From Xanthomonas translucens pv. translucens DSM 18974 (GTDB lineage: Bacteria > Pseudomonadota > Gammaproteobacteria > Xanthomonadales > Xanthomonadaceae), in contig NZ_CAPJ01000457.1 of assembly GCF_000331775.1 (NCBI RefSeq), forward strand, positions 1 to 10,087: 10,087 nt of DNA, written 5' to 3'. The position numbers and the translations under genes are program-made. Below are positions 3 to 7,714 of this stretch, one piece after another. How positions within the stretch are numbered: position 1 is the first letter of the stretch; every line of letters starts with the position of its first letter. The notes beneath the pieces are model-generated. The model was given only the letters and a program-made list of their open reading frames with translations. It had not been told where the DNA came from and searched no databases.

Positions 3-568
3 TGTCCGCATTGGGCGCCGCTGTGCAGCGGCATCGCTATGAAGGTCCGGAGTCTACGCGCTACCGGGACGCATCACTCCGCCGGCACCGCACCGTCGGC
101 ATCGTCCAGAGCGTGGTGGACATACAAGTGCTTGACCAGCACATAGAGCACCACGGTCAGCGGCGCTGCCAACACCACGCCCATCGGCCCGAACAGCACG
201 CCGATGCCGAACAGCGAGAACAGCAGCAAGGCCGGCGGCAGGTCCACCGCACGCGCCTGGATCAGCGGTTGCAACACATGGCCCTCGAGCTGCTGCAGGA
301 CCACGAATACCAGCAGCGCCCCCAGCGCCACCTGCGGGCTGACGGTGAAGCCGAGCAGCACCGCCGGGACCGCGGCCACGATCGGGCCGACGATCGGAAT
401 GAAGTCCAGCAGCGCGGTCAGCAGGCCGATGCCGAGCGCCACCGGAACGCCGAGCAGCCACAGTCCCAACCCGGTCAGACTGCCGATCACCAGCATCGCC
501 AGGAACTGACCGCCCAGCCAGGCGCGCAACACCTGGCCGCTGGCGCTCAATGCCTCGTCGGCGACATC
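3..568. repeat. Direct repeat copy A (duplicate of the AI-2E transporter gene 3' end)
   Basis: This segment matches 6396-6962 in the same orientation. By eye there are 12 substitutions and one 1-nt indel (near position 37) over about 566 bp, and half of the substitutions fall in the last 40 bp (530-568). The match starts at position 3 (bases 1-2 differ), but the left window edge prevents a firm boundary, so the repeat may continue further left. The match ends abruptly at about 568, after which the sequence belongs to the accessory operon. The repeat carries the last ~165 codons of an AI-2E family transporter, plus downstream sequence with a small GCCGCT/AGCGGC hairpin (17-32). Confidence 0.95.
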
Positions 569-610
569 AAGCACGTCAGCAGCGCGAAAAGCACGTTGCT
601 TGCCGAGCAT
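74..610 (-). pseudogene. AI-2E family transporter, 3' fragment (truncated duplicate, chimeric 5' end)
   Basis: This open frame of 178 codons encodes the C-terminal half of an AI-2E/PerM transporter. It is nearly identical to the end of the intact gene at 6468-7520, including the DFIPIVGP and LFGPMGVVLAAPLTVV motifs. The first ~14 codons (MLGKQRAFRAADVL) do not match the transporter. They come from operon DNA across the repeat junction near 568, so the apparent ATG at 610 is accidental. The N-terminal transmembrane helices and about 185 residues are missing, and no convincing ribosome binding site or promoter is seen. I infer a non-functional relic of the duplication that brought in or bounded the island. 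If translated, it would yield a short hydrophobic membrane peptide. Confidence 0.88.
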
Positions 611-639
611 CGCCGCTCACTGTTCATGTGTGCGCGCAT
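547..639 (-). CDS. Truncated start of an unidentified gene downstream of the kinase (possible membrane protein)
   Basis: Beginning 19 nt after the kinase stop codon, an ATG at 639 (or a second in-frame ATG at 627) opens a frame that stays open in operon-specific DNA for 24 codons. It then crosses the repeat junction at about 568, and a TGA follows at 547. The operon-derived residues begin MRAHMNSERRCSAS and continue into NVLFALLTCL. The hydrophobic stretch resembles the first transmembrane helix of an exporter or other membrane protein, but it is too short to assign to a family. The same strand and close spacing suggest a sixth operon gene whose remainder was lost at the repeat boundary. No strong Shine-Dalgarno is visible, so translation could rely on coupling. 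It could also be a chance open frame. Confidence 0.3.
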   Translation of the reverse strand: MRAHMNSERRCSASNVLFALLTCLMSPTRH

Positions 640-658
640 CAAGCCGCTTGCTTTGGCG

Positions 659-1228
659 CTACATTTTCGAGGATGCTCTGCCACTCCATGTCACAATCGC
701 AATGGCGGCGTCGTGTGGCAACAGCTCAGACGTATCGATGCAGAGAGGGTTATCCGACCCGACCGGAACCGTATATGCGAATTCCTGCAGAATGGCAGCA
801 AGATTGGCACGGCTGTTGACTTTCCCGAATGCGCGCCGGTAGGCGTTTTCCACCCTGTCGATTAGGTGATGGTTGGGTGCCCTTAGTTGAACAAAGAATG
901 GCGTCGTCCGGTGGTCTGCGCAGAGGGCTTGGAGCGCATCGACATACCAATCGTCCTCGGGACCGCTATAGCAGAAAGTGGTAACTACGTCGCGAGGATC
1001 GGACTCGAGCAGTAACGCCATCGCAATGAGCCTCAGCCGGCATGCGAAGCGCCTGCGCATCTCAAAACTGCTATCGGCGGCCAGCAACTCGGTGGCGAGA
1101 TCGTAAGTCAGATGGTTATGGAAAAGACTCGCGGATAGCTGCTTCGCGAGTTCTTTCCCGACGGTCAATTTTCCGACGGCGGGCGGACCGTAAAGCATCA
1201 CGAGCTTTCTCCCGCGGTACAAGGTCAT
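659..1228 (-). CDS. P-loop small-molecule kinase / AAA-family ATPase (chloramphenicol phosphotransferase-like fold)
   Basis: A predicted 189-residue nucleoside-triphosphate-dependent kinase. The Walker A motif GPPAVGKLT is at residues 14-22, followed by the FHNHLT segment (36-41) typical of a family of small stand-alone P-loop kinases often annotated as AAA ATPase or shikimate/chloramphenicol-kinase-like. The start at 1228 is preferred over an in-frame ATG at 1267. It has a GAGG ribosome binding site at 1234-1237 with 5-nt spacing, and it lies 7 nt after the preceding stop, whereas the 1267 start would overlap the upstream oxygenase by 32 nt. It is the last complete gene of the operon. The substrate is unknown. 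It may phosphorylate the pathway product or an intermediate, as tailoring or self-protection; both roles are inference. Base composition looks less GC-rich than the flanking core genes. Confidence 0.75.
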   Translation of the reverse strand: MTLYRGRKLVMLYGPPAVGKLTVGKELAKQLSASLFHNHLTYDLATELLAADSSFEMRRRFACRLRLIAMALLLESDPRDVVTTFCYSGPEDDWYVDALQALCADHRTTPFFVQLRAPNHHLIDRVENAYRRAFGKVNSRANLAAILQEFAYTVPVGSDNPLCIDTSELLPHDAAIAIVTWSGRASSKM

Positions 1229-1233
1229 CGTCG

Positions 1234-1237
1234 CCTC
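1234..1237 (-). promoter_or_regulatory. Ribosome binding site that fixes the kinase start
   Basis: On the minus strand GAGG overlaps the TGA stop of the upstream oxygenase gene and lies 5 nt before the ATG at 1228. This stop/Shine-Dalgarno overlap suggests translational coupling and argues against the longer ORF starting at 1267. Confidence 0.6.
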
Positions 1238-1895
1238 ACTGGGCTGTGCTTGTCGTTCCGGGTTCATAGTAGGTGACGTTGAGCGTATTGCGAGTGATGC
1301 CCCCGGTTGCGGACAATCGCGTCACTTCATGCCACGTGTCTTGGTAGTGGCCATCGCGAATGATCACAGTGGCGTTTCCGACAGTTGGCATCATGACATG
1401 GCGGGCTTCGCAATGATTACGAGGGTCAAGAATGCGCAGCAATCCGCCCCATTCGCGCTGCCAATGGGCATTGAAATAAACAATCAAGCGAAAACCTCGG
1501 CGCAGCGACGCATCGACATGTGGCAGGTAGTGCGCGTCCTGTCCTCCGCGAAATGCTACGGCCTCCATCGGAAATTCCGTCAGGTCCGTTCTGCAAAAGG
1601 TGGCCATGGCCGCCCTGAATGTGTCCGATGCGAGCTCTTCGCACATCGCCCGCCATGCATCCGATAGCGTCGCTGGCGCGTCGATGCCGAGCGAGCCCAG
1701 CGGGACAATGGTACGTCGATAAAAGTGTCCTCCGTTGCGTTGCCGAAAGTTGAATCCTTCTGTCGGGAATTCAATCGCAAGTCTGTGTGCCAGCGCGTCG
1801 TTGCGCCATATTTCGCGCAATTCCCCCCAGTCGAACGGCACATCATGGCGCGTCCCTGCCGAAATCTGCTCGAGCGCGAAGTATCCAGCGGTCAT
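1236..1895 (-). CDS. Fe(II)/2-oxoglutarate-dependent oxygenase, prolyl-4-hydroxylase-like
   Basis: A 219-residue enzyme expected to hydroxylate a substrate using Fe(II), O2 and 2-oxoglutarate in the cytoplasm. The metal triad is visible as H126-x-D128 (in YLPHVDAS) and H189 (in DTWHEVTRL). R202, 13 residues later in TRNTLNVTYY, fits the residue that binds the 2-oxoglutarate carboxylate. Between them, a YFNAHWQREWGG segment fits the strand-turn pattern of the 2OG-FeII_Oxy_3 / P4H family. The length is normal for small bacterial members. The start at 1895 has AAGGAA 4 nt upstream. It begins 26 nt after the aminotransferase stop and is followed 7 nt later by the kinase, so it is internal to the operon. 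This is a different oxygenase class from the TauD-like enzyme at 4198-5076, so the pathway probably has two separate oxidation steps. The substrate is not predictable; free amino acid, peptide or small acid are all possible. Confidence 0.85.
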   Translation of the reverse strand: MTAGYFALEQISAGTRHDVPFDWGELREIWRNDALAHRLAIEFPTEGFNFRQRNGGHFYRRTIVPLGSLGIDAPATLSDAWRAMCEELASDTFRAAMATFCRTDLTEFPMEAVAFRGGQDAHYLPHVDASLRRGFRLIVYFNAHWQREWGGLLRILDPRNHCEARHVMMPTVGNATVIIRDGHYQDTWHEVTRLSATGGITRNTLNVTYYEPGTTSTAQ

Positions 1896-1921
1896 GTGTT
1901 TCCTTGTCCGAAAAGAAAGAG

Positions 1922-3178
1922 TCAGTGTTGCGACGCGCTGTCTATCGCATGGACAAGCCGTTGCGTCAGCTCGTCAATTTCATTGTCATCCATGGTGAAA
2001 GGCGGCGCGAGCTTGAGATGTCGATCCGCAGCGCCGATGATCAACCCATGCCGCCGCGCGTCGAGTTGGACGCGGTTGCATGCCTCTGGCGAATCGAATG
2101 TGATCGAAAGCATTAACCCTTTTCCTTGCGCACTCACGACATTGCCCGTCGCCGGCAACTTCTCGCGAATTGCCTGCAGCAAACGCTCGCCCTTCGTTCT
2201 GACGCTTTCATAGCAGTGCTGGACATGCAGGTAGTCGAGAATGAACAATGCGGCGCGGCAGCCCAACAGGTTGCCGGACTGTGTGTGTCCATGCCGGAAA
2301 AATGGGATGGAGTGCGCGGCGAAGCTATCGGCGATCTTGGGTGTCGTCATCACGGCAGTGATCGGGAAGCCGCCGCCGAGGCATTTACTGAAAATAACGA
2401 TGTCCGGATTCGCGCCCTGAGAGACCGACTCGCACAGCGTGCCGGCGCGTCCGATTCCACAATAGACCTCATCGCAAATTAAAGGAATGTCGTATGTCCT
2501 GGCGAGCGATGACAGGGCCTGCAGAAAGCCGTCCGGAAACTGATATGTCCCCGCCATCGCCATAATGGGCTCTATGATGATCGCCGCCACGGTCGATCCA
2601 TGTTCTGCAAGAAGCGCTTCCCATGTTTGCAAGTCGTCGAGGCTCTGCGGTGGTGGCACCGTCATCGAGCAGGTGGCGACAAATGGCAATGCACCTTCGT
2701 TGATGAAGGGGCGTCGCGTGGCGACCATCGCGCCGAGCGTGCAGCCATGGTAGGCGCCATCGATGGCTACCACCAGCGTTCGCTGCGGATGATTGCGACT
2801 GATTTGATACTGCCACGCCATCTTCAGTGCGGCTTCGACGCCCTCGCTGCCGCTACCTGCCAGGAATGTATGTGCGAGTCCCGATGCTGCCAGCTCATCG
2901 CCGAGCCGCTCTGCAAGCGCCTCCGGCAGCACCGTGCTCAAACCGATGTTGCACGCGTGGACAAGCGTATCCATTTGCCGTTTGACGGCATCGAGAAGTG
3001 CTGGGTGAGAATGGCCGAGGCAGTGGTTATAGCTGCCCGATATTCCGTCCAGATAACGTCGGTCCGCATCGTCATACAGATGAATGCCTTCGCCCCTGAC
3101 GATTCTGGGTCTGCCATCCTCCGCATTCAAGGACGTGTACGGTGGCCAATAGCGGCGCGACCTAGAGATAGCATTCAT
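1922..3178 (-). CDS. Class III PLP-dependent aminotransferase
   Basis: A complete 418-residue fold-type I aminotransferase of the class III (ornithine / DAPA / omega-amino acid) family, at the family's usual length. Visible landmarks are the PLP-phosphate loop GSGSEG (residues 108-113), GAYHG (141-145), the cofactor aspartate in ICDEVYCGIGR (D236), the Schiff-base lysine in FSKCLGGGFP (K265), and the HGHTQSGN segment near residue 297. It should move an amino group, often from a terminal amine, to a keto acid or aldehyde. The start ATG at 3178 has AAGGGG at 3186-3191 with 7-nt spacing and overlaps the end of the sulfotransferase gene by 17 nt, indicating coupled translation. It sits between the sulfotransferase and the second oxygenase. 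Its sequence does not point to a specific primary-metabolism enzyme such as ArgD or BioA, and the operon context suggests specialised metabolism. Amino donor and acceptor are unknown. Confidence 0.93.
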   Translation of the reverse strand: MNAISRSRRYWPPYTSLNAEDGRPRIVRGEGIHLYDDADRRYLDGISGSYNHCLGHSHPALLDAVKRQMDTLVHACNIGLSTVLPEALAERLGDELAASGLAHTFLAGSGSEGVEAALKMAWQYQISRNHPQRTLVVAIDGAYHGCTLGAMVATRRPFINEGALPFVATCSMTVPPPQSLDDLQTWEALLAEHGSTVAAIIIEPIMAMAGTYQFPDGFLQALSSLARTYDIPLICDEVYCGIGRAGTLCESVSQGANPDIVIFSKCLGGGFPITAVMTTPKIADSFAAHSIPFFRHGHTQSGNLLGCRAALFILDYLHVQHCYESVRTKGERLLQAIREKLPATGNVVSAQGKGLMLSITFDSPEACNRVQLDARRHGLIIGAADRHLKLAPPFTMDDNEIDELTQRLVHAIDSASQH

Positions 3179-4205
3179 ATAGCGTCCCCTTGAGTTCGGA
3201 TCTCAATTGATCGTTGTTATCGACCGTCGATGAAATCAATGATGTCTCCTTTTTTCCTGTTCCCGGCTGAAGTCGCGCGGACGACACGCCCAGGAAGGCG
3301 AGCAATTTGGCATGCGTGGATGCCGGTTTGGTGAGCAAATCATCGTATTCGATCGGGAAGATCGCGTGGCGATCGAAGCGTTCAAGGAATTCGGCGCGGT
3401 TGGCAAGATCGCGATCTATGAAATCGACGAGTTCGTCGCGCGAAATGGACAGGTTGATCTGTTGCCGCCACCTCTTGTCGTCGCGGCCGACGTACCAGAC
3501 GTGATCGAGAAGACTTTTTTTGAGCGACAGCAGTTGCGCCATGCGGTTGCGTCAATCCAGCAGGATGATCTTCAGGTCCCGCATTTCGGCCAGCGTCTCC
3601 CACACATTGACGCCTGCCCACTCGGTGTCTAGATCGCGAAAGAGCACAAAGCCTACCGCTTCTACATACTCGAAATACGGTCGAAATAGATGCCGCGCGA
3701 GAATTTGCTCTGCTGTAGTGGTCTGTACACAATACGGCAGAAGGTGTTGGCCGAAGCGATTGAATGCTTCGCCATGCATCTCGATGCATGGATGCGAGCC
3801 GAGCAGCGTGCGCAACAGGTGGGTGCCGGAGCGTGGCGTGGATACGATGACGAATTTTTTGTACTGCATCTGCGCCGAGGCGATCTCATCGTGCAGGCTG
3901 CCGCCCACCCATTTTTTTTGCTCGGCTTGCGCGATCTGCGCGCGGATGAGTTCGAACATATCTGGCGAGCTATCGGCCAGGCCGAGCAACGGTGCCATTA
4001 CTTCGTCGCCTCGCAATCCCTTGTTGCTCCAGCGTCTTCCGCCGTTGTGATATTCGCGCACGAATTCCACGATGGACGACGCCATGTCGTCGTCGATGGC
4101 GTATGTCGCAAGATCACTCCGAATCCGCGCGGCAAGCCCGCTCGCGGGGTGCGACATCCATAAGGACCATTGGGATGCAAGCAGCGGCGACGATGCCTCA
4201 GCCAT
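3162..4205 (-). pseudogene. PAPS-dependent sulfotransferase, interrupted by an in-frame TGA
   Basis: This frame runs for 347 codons with one internal TGA (3552-3554). Residues 122-131 read STPRSGTHLL, the 5'-phosphosulfate loop of PAPS sulfotransferases. The 3'-phosphate-binding segment reads KIILLD, stop, RNRMAQLLSL. A downstream region (IEYDDLLTKP, LLAFLGVS) matches the family's C-terminal part. TGA stands where Stf0-type enzymes carry an arginine, so a CGA to TGA transition is the simplest origin. Everything after the stop remains open in the same frame, and an ATG occurs at 3542, 9 nt past the TGA. An N-terminal extension of about 110 residues precedes the catalytic domain, which is unusual. 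The start ATG at 4205 overlaps the preceding gene's TGA (ATGGCTGA). It would transfer sulfate to a hydroxyl or amine of the pathway product. Alternatives to a true pseudogene are a sequencing error, readthrough, or a reinitiated two-part protein. Confidence 0.85.
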
Positions 4206-5076
4206 CTGTGCGTACTCTGATGTCTGCTTGGGGAGCCAACGCGCGAGCGGGAGTTTCCTGCATGGCGTACGCGCGCGGAGCGCATAGAAAGAGGCCTCGC
4301 AGTAGAATGCGCGGGTTGGCGGGATCGTCGGCGTAGGCGCTTCGTCCGTGTGAAAGCTGGTCGTTGCGCATGATCAATGCCTGTCCTTTTTGAAGTGCGA
4401 AGCTCAGTGCGTAGCCGCTATCAGGATCGGTGAGGCGCGTCAGGTACGCCACCGCATCAAGCACTCGGGGATCCATGCGGCGCGAATAGTCCCAATCCGC
4501 GGTCACGTCGAGGGTGAAGCCAGCAACGATCGCGCCGTCTTCTGCGGCGAGGAACACCGGGCCGATGTGCTCATATTGTCTGTCCAAGCGTGGATCGGTC
4601 GATCTGCGCCGGAACGCGTTCGGGGCTAGCAGGCATTGGGCAAGCTCTGGATGATCTCGGGAAAGTGCCGCAAATGCCGACAGGCTGTCGAACAGGATCG
4701 ATTCGCCGCCGTTAGATGCATGCTGCTTGCAAAGCAGCACCGACGTCTTGATCGTGCCAATGGGCAGGTAGGAACCGTCGGTATGCAACGCCACGCTCGA
4801 CGTGCCGTTGAATACATCATGCCGGCCGCTGGTTAAACCGCCGACCTTGTTCATGCCGGATGGCGACATGCCTTCCGTGTGCAATCGGCGGTTGAAATCG
4901 GACTGATACATCGGTCCGAGGTGATAGAGTGCTGCCAGGCGCTCGAAGTCGTGCGCATCGAACCGCCATTTGTCGCAGACGATCGCGAATCCGTACCTGC
5001 CGACATCCCGTACGACGGATTTTACATCGTTCACATCGAGCACCTGTGCAGGCCAATCGTCGAAACGGGTTCGCAT
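4198..5076 (-). CDS. TauD/TfdA-family Fe(II)/2-oxoglutarate dioxygenase (clavaminate-synthase-like)
   Basis: A 292-residue double-stranded beta-helix oxygenase of the TauD/clavaminate synthase superfamily. The iron ligands are H98-x-D100 in ALHTDGSY and the distal H243 in NDQLSHGRSAY. R256 or R260 in NPRILLRGLF is the candidate 2-oxoglutarate-binding arginine. The N-terminal GRYGFAIVCD segment is also typical of the family. The length matches (280-330). It should hydroxylate, desaturate or otherwise oxidise a small polar substrate in the cytoplasm. The start at 5076 has AGAGG at 5083-5087 with 6-nt spacing. It is the first complete gene of the minus-strand operon, and its TGA overlaps the sulfotransferase ATG. 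No clear sigma-70 promoter could be picked out in the 136 nt upstream. A decayed dehydrogenase on the same strand lies just beyond, so the original promoter may have been further upstream and lost. Confidence 0.86.
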   Translation of the reverse strand: MRTRFDDWPAQVLDVNDVKSVVRDVGRYGFAIVCDKWRFDAHDFERLAALYHLGPMYQSDFNRRLHTEGMSPSGMNKVGGLTSGRHDVFNGTSSVALHTDGSYLPIGTIKTSVLLCKQHASNGGESILFDSLSAFAALSRDHPELAQCLLAPNAFRRRSTDPRLDRQYEHIGPVFLAAEDGAIVAGFTLDVTADWDYSRRMDPRVLDAVAYLTRLTDPDSGYALSFALQKGQALIMRNDQLSHGRSAYADDPANPRILLRGLFLCAPRAYAMQETPARALAPQADIRVRTDG

Positions 5077-5161
5077 ACAATGCCTCTGATGAAAATAAAA
5101 ATTCTGGTGCTGAAGCGTTTTCGGGCGGGTAGCGCATACGGCCGGCCTTCATTGAGCACCA

Positions 5162-5181
5162 AGCGGCGATTGCTCGCCGCT
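5162..5181. other. Perfect 8-bp stem-loop upstream of the oxygenase operon
   Basis: AGCGGCGA (5162-5169), loop TTGC, TCGCCGCT (5174-5181). It lies 86 nt upstream of the operon's first ATG and downstream of the dehydrogenase remnant. On the plus strand it is followed by GATTTT; on the minus (operon) strand no T-run follows. It could be a leader hairpin, an operator, or a weak terminator for plus-strand transcription. A second imperfect hairpin (CTTCATCGG against CCGTATGAAG, 5202-5225) is adjacent. Confidence 0.4.
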
Positions 5182-5212
5182 GATTTTATGAAGTTCATCC
5201 ACTTCATCGGAT

Positions 5213-5460
5213 TTACCGTATGAAGATGGCGAGTCGTGATTTCTTGCATGCGGTGCTCGTGCCGCCATCGATCTCGATAATCTGACCGGCAATGTGTTTT
5301 CGAACCGCTATCAAGCGTGCGACCGAAAATTTAATGTTTCCGCCGGCGCACGCAAGACGCAGGAATACATTGGCTAACTGTGTGTTTCGATGATGTTTGC
5401 CAGAAACTGGCGATCATTATGTACGGGAATAACCCGAGTTACCGTGATGTCGTACTCGTC
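5213..5460 (-). pseudogene. Short-chain dehydrogenase/reductase (SDR), decayed C-terminal fragment
   Basis: On the minus strand, the frame ending at TAA 5213 contains RKHIAGQIIEIDGGTS (GQ codons near 5282-5287), the characteristic end of SDR enzymes (ITGQVIxVDGG). Upstream in the same frame is QLANVFLRLA, also SDR-like. A second frame further up reads DEYDITVTRVIPVHNDRQF and then hits TAG; it resembles the YGITVNxVxPG segment that follows the catalytic lysine in SDRs. Stops and at least one frameshift separate these pieces, and the N-terminal Rossmann half with the YxxxK site is absent. It lies on the operon strand, 137 nt upstream of the TauD-like gene, so it may be the former first gene of the operon, destroyed by the mobile debris at 5.5-6.3 kb. 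The SDR assignment is strong for the last 20 codons and tentative before that. Confidence 0.6.
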
Positions 5461-5567
5461 CCATTAAGGTAAAGTATGACGCTATCTACAAACTCGATCA
5501 TGCAAGCTGCGAACAGCAGGCCCTGCTGCGCCGCCGCCATTGATCAACGATCAATCCTTGGGGCCAG

Positions 5568-5612
5568 GCTGTGCGGCGCACCATCGTGGATGCCACGATC
5601 ATTGCCGCGCCC
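5568..5612 (+). mobile_element. IS5-family transposase fragment
   Basis: The plus-strand frame at 5568-5612 reads AVRRTIVDATIIAAP. The TIVDATIIAAP core is the conserved strand carrying the first DDE aspartate of IS5-type transposases. The usual SSTKN continuation is replaced by unrelated sequence, and the frame stops soon after. Nothing else of the element is recognisable, although TTGATC-AAC-GATCAA (5540-5554) and a perfect 8-bp inverted repeat (5621-5641) lie alongside. It is a dead remnant. Confidence 0.55.
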
Positions 5613-5669
5613 TTCCCGGCCAGGCGCCTCGATGGCGCCTGATGGCGTCGTTAGCGGTGAGGCAGCGCA

Positions 5670-5831: not shown

Positions 5832-5842
5832 TGCCAGGACAT

Positions 5843-5874
5843 CATGAAGACCGAGCAAATCCGCGGTCTTCATG
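5843..5874. repeat. Perfect 10-bp inverted repeat at the recombinase/IS4 junction
   Basis: CATGAAGACC (5843-5852) and GGTCTTCATG (5865-5874) are separated by 12 nt. A smaller GGCAT/ATGCC hairpin lies just left (5821-5835). On the minus strand the right arm contains an ATG (5873) preceded by GAGG. It opens an 18-codon frame beginning MKTADLLGLHDVLALRMP, possibly the truncated start of another mobile-element gene. No T-run follows either arm, so it is not an obvious terminator. Confidence 0.5.
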
Positions 5875-5910
5875 GCAACACCTCAACCGTCCAGCATCGC
5901 CTTGTCGCGA

Positions 5911-6273
5911 ATCGCGGAATCCCAACTCGATCTGCATCCGCCAACGATAAATCGCCACCACCTGCCCAGCGCTGACCTTAGATATCTGCTGGCAGACCCT
6001 CAGCAACCAGGGTTCGGCTTCCCGTTGTGCATGCTGCCGGCTTTGCTTGCCGCGGCGGCGCTCGCCCTTGCGGGTCATGTGACGCCGTCCGCGCGCCTGG
6101 TACGCATGCAGGACCAAGCGCGCCTGGATCGGCTCGTTGCGCACCACCTCGCACACGCCCAGATCGCGCGCCTTGCCCACCTGGGTCAACGCGTACAGTG
6201 CGCGACATGGCACCCACTGGTCGACCCGGTCGGGGATCTTGACAGGCTTGACCAGGGTGCGATGCCGCAGGCG
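5911..6273 (-). mobile_element. IS4-family transposase, internal fragment
   Basis: About 120 codons on the minus strand match the central to C-terminal region of IS4-family transposases. LRHRTLVKPVKIPDRVDQW is followed by an RALYAL segment, a basic RGRRHMTRKGERRRGKQSR stretch, then EPWLL, and finally AIYRWRMQIELGFRD. The last is the Y-(2)-R-(3)-E-(6)-K-type signature of IS4 enzymes (YRxRMQIExxFRD). Similarity ends sharply after FRD near 5911, before the usual DxKSHRYG, and at its 5' side it abuts a different gene fragment near 6273. Both DDE aspartates upstream and the element's terminal repeats are missing, so this is an immobile remnant. It truncates the YcxB-like gene and forms the right part of the island's mobile debris. 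Confidence 0.75.
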
Positions 6274-6388
6274 CGTGATCCACCAAGGCCAGGGCGACGA
6301 CATAGCGCCGCCCGACGACGCGCCAGCAGAAGCTCGCCACGGCTTGCCGGATCAGCTTTCTGTCGTAGCGCAGGGTGACGCGGTGCAT
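6274..6388 (-). pseudogene. YcxB-like membrane protein, 5' fragment cut off by IS4 sequence
   Basis: From the ATG at 6388 the minus strand reads MHRVTLRYDRKLIRQAVASF and continues into WRVVGRRYVVALALV. This is an amphipathic start followed by the beginning of a transmembrane helix, resembling the N-terminus of YcxB-family proteins of Xanthomonadaceae. After ~36 codons the sequence changes to transposase in another frame. The fragment lies 80 nt downstream of the AI-2E transporter gene on the same strand, so an intact version may be the normal chromosomal neighbour. No strong ribosome binding site is visible. The family call comes from remembered sequence style and is moderate. Confidence 0.42.
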
Positions 6389-6395
6389 CGTGTAA

Positions 6396-6962
6396 TGTCC
6401 GCATTGGGCGCCGCTGTGCAGCGGCATCGGTTATGAAGGTCCGGAGTCTACGCGCTACCGGGACGCATCACTCCGCCGGCACCGCACCGTCGGCATCGTC
6501 CAGGGCGTGGTGGACATACAAGTGCTTGACCAGCACATAGAGCACCACGGTCAGCGGCGCTGCCAACACCACGCCCATCGGCCCGAACAGCACGCCGATG
6601 CCGAACAGCGAGAACAGCAGCAAGGCCGGCGGCAGGTCCACCGCACGCGCCTGCATCAGCGGTTGCAACACATGGCCCTCGAGCTGCTGCAGGACCACGA
6701 ATACCAGCAGCGCCCCCAGCGCCACCTGCGGGCTGACGGTGAAGCCGAGCAGCACCGCCGGGACCGCCGCCACGATCGGGCCGACGATCGGAATGAAGTC
6801 CAGCAGCGCGGTCAGCAGGCCGATGCCGAGTGCCACCGGAACGCCGAGCAGCCACAGTCCCAACCCGGTCAGGCTGCCGATCACCAGCATCGCCAGGAAC
6901 TGACCGCCCAGCCAGGCGCGCAATACCTTTCCGCTGGCGGTCAAGGCTTCGTCGGCGACATC
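6396..6962. repeat. Direct repeat copy B (inside the intact AI-2E transporter gene)
   Basis: Same-orientation partner of 3-568, with an offset of 6393-6394 bp. It covers the last ~165 codons of the intact transporter gene and about 70 bp downstream. The match ends near 6962, where this copy continues as transporter (RLLPRDRRDVADEAL) while copy A switches to operon DNA. The two copies bracket the whole accessory island. Confidence 0.95.
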
Positions 6963-7520
6963 GCGGCGGTCGCGCGGCAGCAGCCGCAGCAGTCCGCGCC
7001 GATACAGCTTGGGCTGCGCCGCCAGATAGACGCCGCCGACGATCATCAGCACCGCATCGGTGATCCCGCCGCCGGCCGACAGCACGATCGCCCCGGCATG
7101 CGTGGCCAGTGTCGAAGCGCCGTCGCGCAACTGGTCGGGGATGCTCTCGATCTGCGGCCCGAGCGGGCCGGACTGCAACCAGGCATGGAACTTGTTCCAT
7201 GCCGCCGGCAGTGTAGTGCGGAACGCGTCGATCTGGGCGGCGACTTCCGCACCGAACAGCAACACGATCGACGACAGGATCAGCACCAACGACAGGATCA
7301 CCAGGCCCAGTGCGGCCCATTCCGGCACCGGCAGCCGCTTGCGCAACGTCGACGCCAGCCCGTGCAGCAGCACGCCCACCACCACCGCGCCGAACACGAC
7401 CAGCAGCAGTTCGGAGAGTTGCCAGGCCAGCAGGGCCAGACCGCCCAGCGCCATGACGACCAGGACGCGCTCGGCGAATGGCCGCAGCGGGGAGGGAGAG
7501 CGTGGGGCGGAGGAAAGCAT
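6468..7520 (-). CDS. AI-2E family transporter (PerM-like integral membrane protein)
   Basis: A complete ~350-residue multi-pass inner-membrane protein of the AI-2E/PerM superfamily, whose members are proposed exporters or permeases; some act in ion homeostasis and TqsA acts in AI-2 export. Hydrophobic segments include VMALGGLALLAW, VVFGAVVVGVLLHGLA, LVILSLVLILSSIVLLFGA and the long C-terminal block. Family hallmarks are LTALLDFIPIVGPIVAAVP, QLEGHVLQPL and FGPMGVVLAAPLTVV. The frame is open to 7655, but the region before 7529 is low-complexity and un-transporter-like. The ATG at 7520 (MLSSAPRS) has AGGA 8 nt upstream and is preferred; the ATG at 7529 (MSQML) is an alternative. It looks monocistronic in its present state. 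The specific substrate is unknown. Its 3' end is duplicated at the far side of the island. Confidence 0.92.
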   Translation of the reverse strand: MLSSAPRSPSPLRPFAERVLVVMALGGLALLAWQLSELLLVVFGAVVVGVLLHGLASTLRKRLPVPEWAALGLVILSLVLILSSIVLLFGAEVAAQIDAFRTTLPAAWNKFHAWLQSGPLGPQIESIPDQLRDGASTLATHAGAIVLSAGGGITDAVLMIVGGVYLAAQPKLYRRGLLRLLPRDRRDVADEALTASGKVLRAWLGGQFLAMLVIGSLTGLGLWLLGVPVALGIGLLTALLDFIPIVGPIVAAVPAVLLGFTVSPQVALGALLVFVVLQQLEGHVLQPLMQARAVDLPPALLLFSLFGIGVLFGPMGVVLAAPLTVVLYVLVKHLYVHHALDDADGAVPAE

Positions 7521-7714
7521 CTGGGACATCCTGGCAAAACCAAAGTGTGCGGACGATACGGTCAGCGAAGTGCAAAGCAGGCGAAGAGCGCACGGCGGCG
7601 CCGTTGCCGGAACCACCCTGGTCGATCGCCAGGCCGCCCACCCACACTCCGCCAATTCTGCAAGCCCGCATGTGTCAATCCGAAAGGCGAAGTTGCATCG
7701 GCTTGAGCGAAATG

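What the first reader, a model, noticed from the sequence alone, without database searches (positions are those of the whole stretch)
569..5460. Compact operon combining two different Fe/2OG oxygenases, a sulfotransferase, a class III aminotransferase and a small kinase
The sequence shows five minus-strand genes with overlapping or near-abutting junctions: TauD-type oxygenase, sulfotransferase, aminotransferase, P4H-type oxygenase, P-loop kinase. Each family is well known, but I know of no characterised pathway with this exact set and order. The set would suit building and decorating a small amino-containing compound (two oxidations, one amination, one sulfation, possibly one phosphorylation). 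No NRPS, PKS or ATP-grasp ligase is visible, so the scaffold is probably supplied by primary metabolism or by genes lost or located elsewhere. This is the best candidate here for an undescribed system.
Basis: partly seen in the sequence, partly recalled or inferred. Interest (0 to 1): 0.75.

Follow-up and report, generated by a model that had tools for sequence, protein, structure and literature searches.

The report
Known orphan virulence operon, partly decayed
The five genes are a Xanthomonas-type copy of a gene set shared by several genera of plant-pathogenic bacteria and already reported in Pseudomonas syringae as supporting virulence; what it makes was not found in print, and in this strain one of the genes is broken.

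Summary
The five minus-strand genes are real and in the order stated (TauD-type oxygenase, sulfotransferase, class III aminotransferase, P4H-type oxygenase, small kinase), but the sulfotransferase is split by an in-frame TGA (3552-3554). The set is not unique: 21 of 21 relatives first examined (19 genomes, 2 plasmids) carry all five in the same order and strand, as do two more genomes. Named hosts are Xanthomonas, Paracidovorax, the Pseudomonas syringae group, Pectobacterium and Erwinia. It matches PSPPH_A0110-A0106, described in 2014 as a HrpL-controlled operon behind avrD; deleting the P4H gene there lowers growth in bean, and the passages read name no product. The core does not need avrD: that family was found in 3 of 21 records or genomes, all P. 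syringae group. New here: 8 of 8 Enterobacterales loci have an SDR gene just upstream, and the window keeps decayed pieces of one. dN/dS of 0.12-0.30 against X. hyacinthi, transfer between beta- and gammaproteobacteria, and a flanking 566-bp repeat fit a mobile, selected metabolic operon. Best reading: it makes a small sulfated amino compound used on plants; in this strain the pathway is probably blocked at sulfation.

The parts
659..1267 (-). Small P-loop kinase (202 aa), gene 5 of the core; by order the counterpart of PSPPH_A0106
   Evidence: AAA_18 3.2e-6, just under cut-off; P-loop GPPAVGKLT invariant in 13 of 13 aligned; AlphaFold model pLDDT 84, best PDB match an uncharacterised kinase (2rhm), then gluconate kinases
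1236..1895 (-). P4H/SM-20-like Fe(II)/2OG oxygenase (219 aa), gene 4; counterpart of PSPPH_A0107 ('SanC')
   Evidence: PF13640 1.3e-8; H126, D128, H189, R202 in 15 of 15 aligned; 68% identical to the P. savastanoi protein
1922..3178 (-). Class III PLP aminotransferase (418 aa), gene 3; counterpart of PSPPH_A0108
   Evidence: PF00202 1e-80; K265, D236, E203 in 14 of 14 aligned; 69% identical to the P. savastanoi protein
3162..3542 (-). Sulfotransferase, C-terminal piece after the in-frame stop
   Evidence: PF13469 3.7e-4; 125/126 identical to intact P0019
3552..3554 (-). In-frame TGA that interrupts the sulfotransferase
   Evidence: 20 of 20 relatives tested there have no internal stop
3552..4205 (-). 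Sulfotransferase, N-terminal piece (217 aa) with a PRSGTHLL stretch at the 5'-phosphosulfate-binding site (motif name recalled), gene 2; counterpart of PSPPH_A0109
   Evidence: PF13469 1.8e-5; 213/217 identical to intact P0019
4198..5076 (-). TauD-type Fe(II)/2OG oxygenase (292 aa), gene 1 of the core; counterpart of PSPPH_A0110
   Evidence: PF02668 5.5e-26; H98, D100, H243, R256 in 14 of 14 aligned
5252..5469 (-). Decayed SDR gene (two colinear pieces in different frames) where Enterobacterales loci have an SDR
   Evidence: Profile hits at SDR positions 241-258 (5.4 bits) and 181-207 (-0.8 bits) of 259. 0 of 500 dinucleotide shuffles reach 5.4 bits (best 2.9); the second piece alone is within shuffle range and counts only by its order and by its better-scoring counterpart in X. 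hyacinthi G023 (4.6 bits). About the same distance from TauD as in Pectobacterium/Erwinia (-212 against -195 to -210)
5842..6303 (-). Transposase remnant (DDE_Tnp_1)
   Evidence: PF01609 1e-5, partial
3..568 (.). Left copy of a 566-bp direct repeat: 3' part of the AI-2E transporter gene
   Evidence: 554/567 identical to 6396-6962
6396..6962 (.). Right copy of the direct repeat, at the 3' end of the full AI-2E transporter gene (6468-7655, minus)

Best explanation
The five genes are a horizontally moving, conserved metabolic operon found in genera of plant pathogens, homologous to PSPPH_A0110-A0106 of the avrD-linked HrpL operon of P. syringae. Shown: gene set, order, strand and catalytic residues are conserved across five named genera; the core occurs without avrD; the window's genes were under purifying selection; the P. 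syringae copy is HrpL-controlled and its P4H gene supports growth in bean (published). Inferred: the enzymes build one small, non-peptide compound from primary metabolism. The two Fe(II)/2OG oxygenases (and, in Enterobacterales, an SDR) install hydroxyl or carbonyl groups, the class III aminotransferase turns a carbonyl into an amine, the sulfotransferase puts a sulfate from PAPS on the product, and the small kinase phosphorylates an intermediate or the product. The product acts on or in the plant. The sixth gene probably varied: an SDR upstream (kept in Pectobacterium/Erwinia, a remnant here), avrD and a phosphatase in P. syringae. In the window's strain the sulfotransferase is interrupted, so the pathway probably stops before sulfation.
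For: Same order and strand in 21 of 21 relatives and in G023 and G057. Identity to the published P. savastanoi operon 56-71% per gene or piece. Published HrpL control and reduced bean growth on deletion of PSPPH_A0107 (passages). avrD family in 3 of 21 searched records or genomes, all P. syringae group. dN/dS 0.12-0.30 for six pieces against X. hyacinthi. Checked catalytic residues invariant in alignments of 13-15 sequences. The 11 PDB matches at E<=0.001 of the sulfotransferase model are all sulfotransferases, at low TM-scores. Paracidovorax (beta) nested among Xanthomonas. SDR in 8 of 8 Enterobacterales loci and a remnant here.
Against: No product, substrate or reaction order is known or was tested. 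No hrp-box or PIP-box on the sense strand within 2.6 kb upstream of TauD in the window, so virulence control is not shown outside P. syringae. The published virulence effect is slight and, for avrD, conflicts with an earlier competition assay. Substrates are not resolved by sequence or fold. Two other relatives (L013, G057) also have a broken sulfotransferase, so sulfation may be dispensable in some lineages. Single sulfotransferase relatives were also listed from a Planctomycetes MAG (P0056, 53% identity over 78%) and a 5-kb Streptomyces-labelled contig (P0033, 63%); their gene surroundings were not seen, so restriction to plant pathogens is not proven.
Confidence: 0.7

Rival explanations
1. 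The operon modifies a plant compound rather than building a bacterial one: it takes up a host hormone or defence metabolite, hydroxylates it with the 2OG oxygenases and inactivates it by sulfation.
For: Two hydroxylases plus a sulfotransferase suit hydroxylation and sulfation of a ready-made molecule; named hosts belong to plant-pathogen genera; no scaffold-making enzyme is seen in the window.
Against: An aminotransferase, a kinase and (in Enterobacterales) an SDR are more than inactivation needs. Beyond the five core genes no gene family is shared by more than 8 of the 22 loci compared, so no uptake or sensor gene goes with the set. The oxygenases are TauD and P4H types, not the plant hormone-oxidase type (recalled).
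Confidence: 0.2
2. It is an accessory part of syringolide synthesis by AvrD.
For: In P. syringae the five genes lie directly behind avrD and a phosphatase on one HrpL-controlled transcript.
Against: avrD family absent from 18 of 21 searched records or genomes that hold the core, including every non-Pseudomonas one. E. coli with avrD makes syringolides, as stated in PMC3879358.
Confidence: 0.04
3. In the window's strain the island is dead: sulfotransferase stop, lost SDR and flanking insertion debris mean no product at all.
For: In-frame TGA; SDR remnant in two frames; transposase remnant and repeat.
Against: The other four genes are open with conserved catalytic residues; dN/dS is low even for the sulfotransferase pieces; a near-identical intact sulfotransferase exists (P0019, 98-99% identical, cluster of 28 sequences), so the lesion looks recent. 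The SDR loss is older and shared with X. hyacinthi, whose operon has an intact sulfotransferase.
Confidence: 0.45
4. The in-frame TGA is a sequencing or assembly error and the operon is intact.
For: Single lesion in an otherwise selected operon; an intact near-identical protein exists.
Against: A stop without a frameshift is less typical of assembly error (general knowledge); reads are not available.
Confidence: 0.2

Closest known systems
avrD-linked HrpL operon PSPPH_A0112-A0106 of Pseudomonas savastanoi pv. phaseolicola 1448A (PMC3879358; passages read)
   Same: The five core genes (A0110, A0109, A0108, A0107, A0106; matched by order) have the same families, order and strand, 56-71% identity per gene or piece
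   Different: Window has no avrD or histidine phosphatase in front, no hrp-box found within 2.6 kb, a broken sulfotransferase, and an AI-2E transporter flank instead of a plasmid
X. hyacinthi copy (G023; its sulfotransferase equals P0020, named X. hyacinthi, 347/347)
   Same: 89% DNA identity over 650-5637, SDR remnant at the same place, an AI-2E transporter gene about 2 kb away
   Different: Intact sulfotransferase
Pectobacterium/Erwinia form (L012-L018, L020)
   Same: Same five genes in the same order, 44-62% identity per gene or piece (7 loci; the eighth, L013, is frameshifted)
   Different: An SDR gene stands directly upstream in 8 of 8 loci; the one scanned (L014) falls in a gluconate 5-dehydrogenase subfamily above its cut-off
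Phevamine (hsv) operon of P. syringae (recalled, not looked up)
   Same: Also a HrpL-controlled small-molecule operon spread among plant pathogens (recalled)
   Different: Different enzymes (recalled)

Membership tests
PSPPH_A0110-A0106 core (avrD-linked operon) | Same five gene families in the same order and strand | tested here: met
PSPPH_A0110-A0106 core (avrD-linked operon) | Homology over nearly the whole of each product | tested here: met
   56.5-70.7% identity to L001 per gene or piece
PSPPH_A0110-A0106 core (avrD-linked operon) | All five reading frames intact | tested here: not met
   In-frame TGA in the sulfotransferase
avrD operon as a whole | avrD and phosphatase directly upstream | tested here: not met
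   Upstream of TauD are an SDR remnant, a transposase remnant and the AI-2E gene; the window's whole genome is not held
avrD operon as a whole | hrp-box promoter | tested here: not met
   None on the sense strand within 2.6 kb in the window; the same scan finds one box at about -2155 in 3 of 4 P. syringae group loci, the fourth (L011) being a contig with 415 bp upstream; that box equals the AvrD1 hrp-box printed in PMC5424326. Scattered single matches in L004, L005, L015, L018 and L020 were taken as chance
avrD operon as a whole | Required for full virulence | not testable with these tools
   Published for deletions of avrD and PSPPH_A0107
Syringolide biosynthesis | An AvrD family protein | tested here: not met
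   Not among the ten window ORFs scanned; 18 of 21 records or genomes with the core lack it
TauD/TfdA Fe(II)/2OG oxygenase | HxD...H metal triad and a distal arginine | tested here: met
   14 of 14 aligned
P4H-type Fe(II)/2OG oxygenase | HxD...H metal triad and a 2OG-binding basic residue | tested here: met
   15 of 15 aligned
Class III aminotransferase | Pfam Aminotran_3 and the PLP lysine | tested here: met
PAPS sulfotransferase | Sulfotransferase domain and fold | tested here: inconclusive
   Both window pieces score under the Pfam cut-off; the model of the intact X. albilineans relative matches only sulfotransferases at E<=0.001, but at TM 0.25-0.36
Nikkomycin 'SanC' | Function of the Streptomyces protein | not tested
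   The name is an old putative label; the link to nikkomycin is recalled

The most novel reading that the evidence does not exclude
The operon makes a new class of small sulfated, hydroxylated amino compound (possibly sugar-acid derived, given an SDR of the gluconate 5-dehydrogenase subfamily and a kinase fold near gluconate kinases) that plant pathogens of several genera have swapped among themselves and use on plants; lineages tune it by gaining or losing a sixth enzyme and perhaps, more than once, the sulfotransferase.
Probability: 0.35. Interest if true: 0.75.

Novelty: new member of a known kind. Interest (0 to 1): 0.42.

Why it matters
A five-enzyme set kept in the same order across Xanthomonas, Paracidovorax, the P. 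syringae group, Pectobacterium and Erwinia, under purifying selection where tested and with a published effect on growth in bean, is a good candidate for a shared small-molecule virulence factor whose product the literature seen here does not name. The extra SDR and the avrD-free hosts separate the core question (what do these enzymes make?) from syringolides and point to single-gene deletions that could answer it.

Tried and rejected
Own-genome search: no genome held. Near-identical plasmid DNA: none. Viral contigs: 22 pattern stretches, none a relative. Promoter boxes: none near TauD in the window; PIP-like matches at -233 in L004 and L005 and far single matches in L015, L018 and L020 were not taken as promoters; sense strand only. 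SanDABC and SanC literature: nothing; 'SanC' is an old putative label. Paper searches. Passages were read in PMC3879358, PMC2856684, PMC3639832, PMC1557829, PMC5357869, PMC5424326, PMC3136466 and PMC8719888; the other listed papers were seen in listings only. None of the passages names a product of the five genes. PMC1557829 and PMC5357869 tell of an avrD-like gene of Ralstonia solanacearum under HrpG, not of the five genes. That no product is in print is claimed only for this much of the held open-access library.

Idea that the roughly 30%-identical P4H relatives in other, unnamed Pseudomonas (18 of 298 genomes, E 4e-33 to 9e-40) and in the Paracidovorax family (2 of 399) share the pathway: rejected; the other four genes lie within 1.5 kb in 0 of 9 such loci checked. 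Ten neighbour proteins of three of these loci were scanned: mostly polysaccharide export and glycosylation genes, also a porin and one without a family; one of the ten is the oxygenase itself. Syringolide accessory role: rejected. Chance neighbours: rejected. Kinase as an APS kinase supplying PAPS: not excluded, but gluconate kinases rank higher in the fold search. SDR remnant by plain tblastn at E 1e-3: not found in the window; a first pattern scan also missed it because the pattern was wrong; it was found by a mended pattern, by profile and by position, so it rests on short pieces.
Full report
What is there. The window carries five minus-strand genes between 659 and 5076. Pfam names them, in order of transcription, TauD oxygenase, Sulfotransfer_3, Aminotran_3, 2OG-FeII_Oxy_3 and an AAA_18-type kinase (the two sulfotransferase pieces and the kinase are under their curated cut-offs). 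The genes overlap or nearly touch. The sulfotransferase is broken: 3552-4205 and 3162-3542 lie in one frame with a TGA between them. In 20 of 20 relatives tested the same frame has no internal stop, and G023 is intact. Two more relatives are frameshifted there: Pectobacterium sp. PL152 (L013, several genes in pieces) and G057. A 98-99% identical, intact protein exists (P0019, cluster of 28 sequences), so the lesion is recent or an error.

Related loci. A protein search with the P4H-type oxygenase found 18 proteins, the window's own included, in about 5.8 billion (sensitivity limited). A scan of species genomes with an alignment of 15 of them gave 19 loci, in Xanthomonas, Paracidovorax, P. syringae and P. 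avellanae, Pectobacterium and Erwinia. With two P. syringae group plasmids, 21 of 21 loci carry all five genes in the same order and strand. Single genes bear Ralstonia names too. Whole-genome searches show patchiness: strong matches (E below 1e-100) in 3 of 20 and 6 of 35 genomes of the two Xanthomonas groups, 2 of 399 of the Paracidovorax family, 2 of 392 of the Pectobacterium family group and 1 of 298 Pseudomonas, 14 of 1144 in all. The last three groups were samples of larger groups, and 12 of the 14 were already known, so these are not unbiased frequencies; G023 and G057 are the new ones. Weaker matches in those calls (1, 11, 2 and 37 genomes) are not counted; 20 of them (18 Pseudomonas, 2 of the Paracidovorax family) match over the whole length, and in 0 of 9 such loci checked do the other four genes lie within 1.5 kb.

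Known operon. The P. savastanoi pv. phaseolicola 1448A locus shows the same five genes behind avrD and a histidine phosphatase. By order these are PSPPH_A0110-A0106. Passages of PMC3879358 report that they are HrpL-regulated from the avrD promoter, that deletion of PSPPH_A0107 or avrD lowers growth in bean, that the authors suspect a small molecule and think the genes not needed for syringolides, and that similar operons occur in Xanthomonas, Acidovorax, Pectobacterium and Ralstonia. The finding is therefore a further copy of a described operon with no product named there.

(1) The core is independent of avrD: the AvrD family was found in 3 of 21 records or genomes, all P. syringae group (for the two plasmids only the plasmid was searched). 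(2) In 8 of 8 Pectobacterium and Erwinia loci an SDR gene stands directly upstream (frameshifted in L013); the one scanned (L014) scores above the curated cut-off of a gluconate 5-dehydrogenase subfamily. The window and X. hyacinthi (G023, identified by an identical 347-aa sulfotransferase) hold decayed pieces of it at about the same distance from TauD. The window's best piece (5.4 bits) is reached by 0 of 500 dinucleotide shuffles, G023's best (4.6 bits) by 0 of the same 500; the window's second piece (-0.8 bits) is within shuffle range and counts by its order only. No such piece was seen in the other Xanthomonas loci (L003-L008, L021). (3) Window against X. hyacinthi gives dN/dS 0.12-0.30 in all six pieces. 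(4) A three-protein tree of 22 copies (L013 and G057 left out) puts Paracidovorax, a betaproteobacterium, among Xanthomonas (support 0.90 for its place beside X. albilineans, 1.00 for the joint group), so the set has moved between classes. (5) Mobility marks: in X. arboricola two 1.2-kb insertion-sequence copies, 99.7% identical, flank the set; here a 566-bp direct repeat of the AI-2E gene and a transposase remnant do. Of three close genomes without a P4H match, G022 and G032 show the AI-2E gene once in the stretch fetched; G020 also has a second partial copy, so the repeat can arise without the island.

How it probably works. Shown: checked metal and 2OG ligands, PLP lysine and P-loop are invariant in the alignments; the sulfotransferase model matches only sulfotransferases at E<=0.001, at low TM-scores; the kinase model is nearest to an uncharacterised kinase and then gluconate kinases. 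Inferred: two oxidations (three with the SDR), one amination, one sulfation and one phosphorylation on a small scaffold from primary metabolism. The order of steps and the substrate are not known. In the window's strain the truncated sulfotransferase lacks about its last 130 residues and is probably inactive.

Limits. The window's own genome is not held, so avrD elsewhere in it cannot be excluded. Control by the type III system outside P. syringae is not shown; no promoter box was found. Sulfotransferase relatives labelled Planctomycetes and Streptomyces (P0056, P0033) could not be seen in context. The literature searched is the held open-access library only.

Noticed in passing
window 3-568 and 6396-6962: The island is bracketed by a 566-bp direct repeat made of the 3' part of the AI-2E transporter gene (554/567 identical); G022 and G032, without the island, show the gene once, while G020 has a second partial copy without the island.
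   Followed up: partly
L005 4633-5841 and 11254-12462: In X. arboricola two 1.2-kb insertion-sequence copies (99.7% identical, rve integrase core) flank the operon like a composite transposon.
   Followed up: partly
L013 7642-11166: Pectobacterium sp. PL152 has several operon genes in frameshifted pieces; decay or a low-quality assembly.
   Followed up: no
L070 (G476:C32) 1-10494: Two adjacent distant P4H-type oxygenase genes sit with EPSP-synthase, radical SAM, class I/II aminotransferase, TruD and weak arginine-deiminase matches: an odd cluster of its own.
   Followed up: no
L063, L064, L067: Roughly 30% identical P4H-type oxygenases in other Pseudomonas and the Paracidovorax family lie near polysaccharide-export genes (ABC transporter with Wzt domain in all three; pyruvyl and glycosyl transferases in L067), a hint that this oxygenase family can act on sugars.
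   Followed up: partly
PMC3639832: PSPPH_A0109, the sulfotransferase, is listed as down-regulated (0.49) in a low-temperature transcriptome of P. syringae pv. phaseolicola NPS3121.
   Followed up: no
PMC1557829, PMC5357869: An avrD-like gene of Ralstonia solanacearum is reported under HrpG and up-regulated in planta; whether the five-gene core is co-regulated there was not looked at.
   Followed up: no
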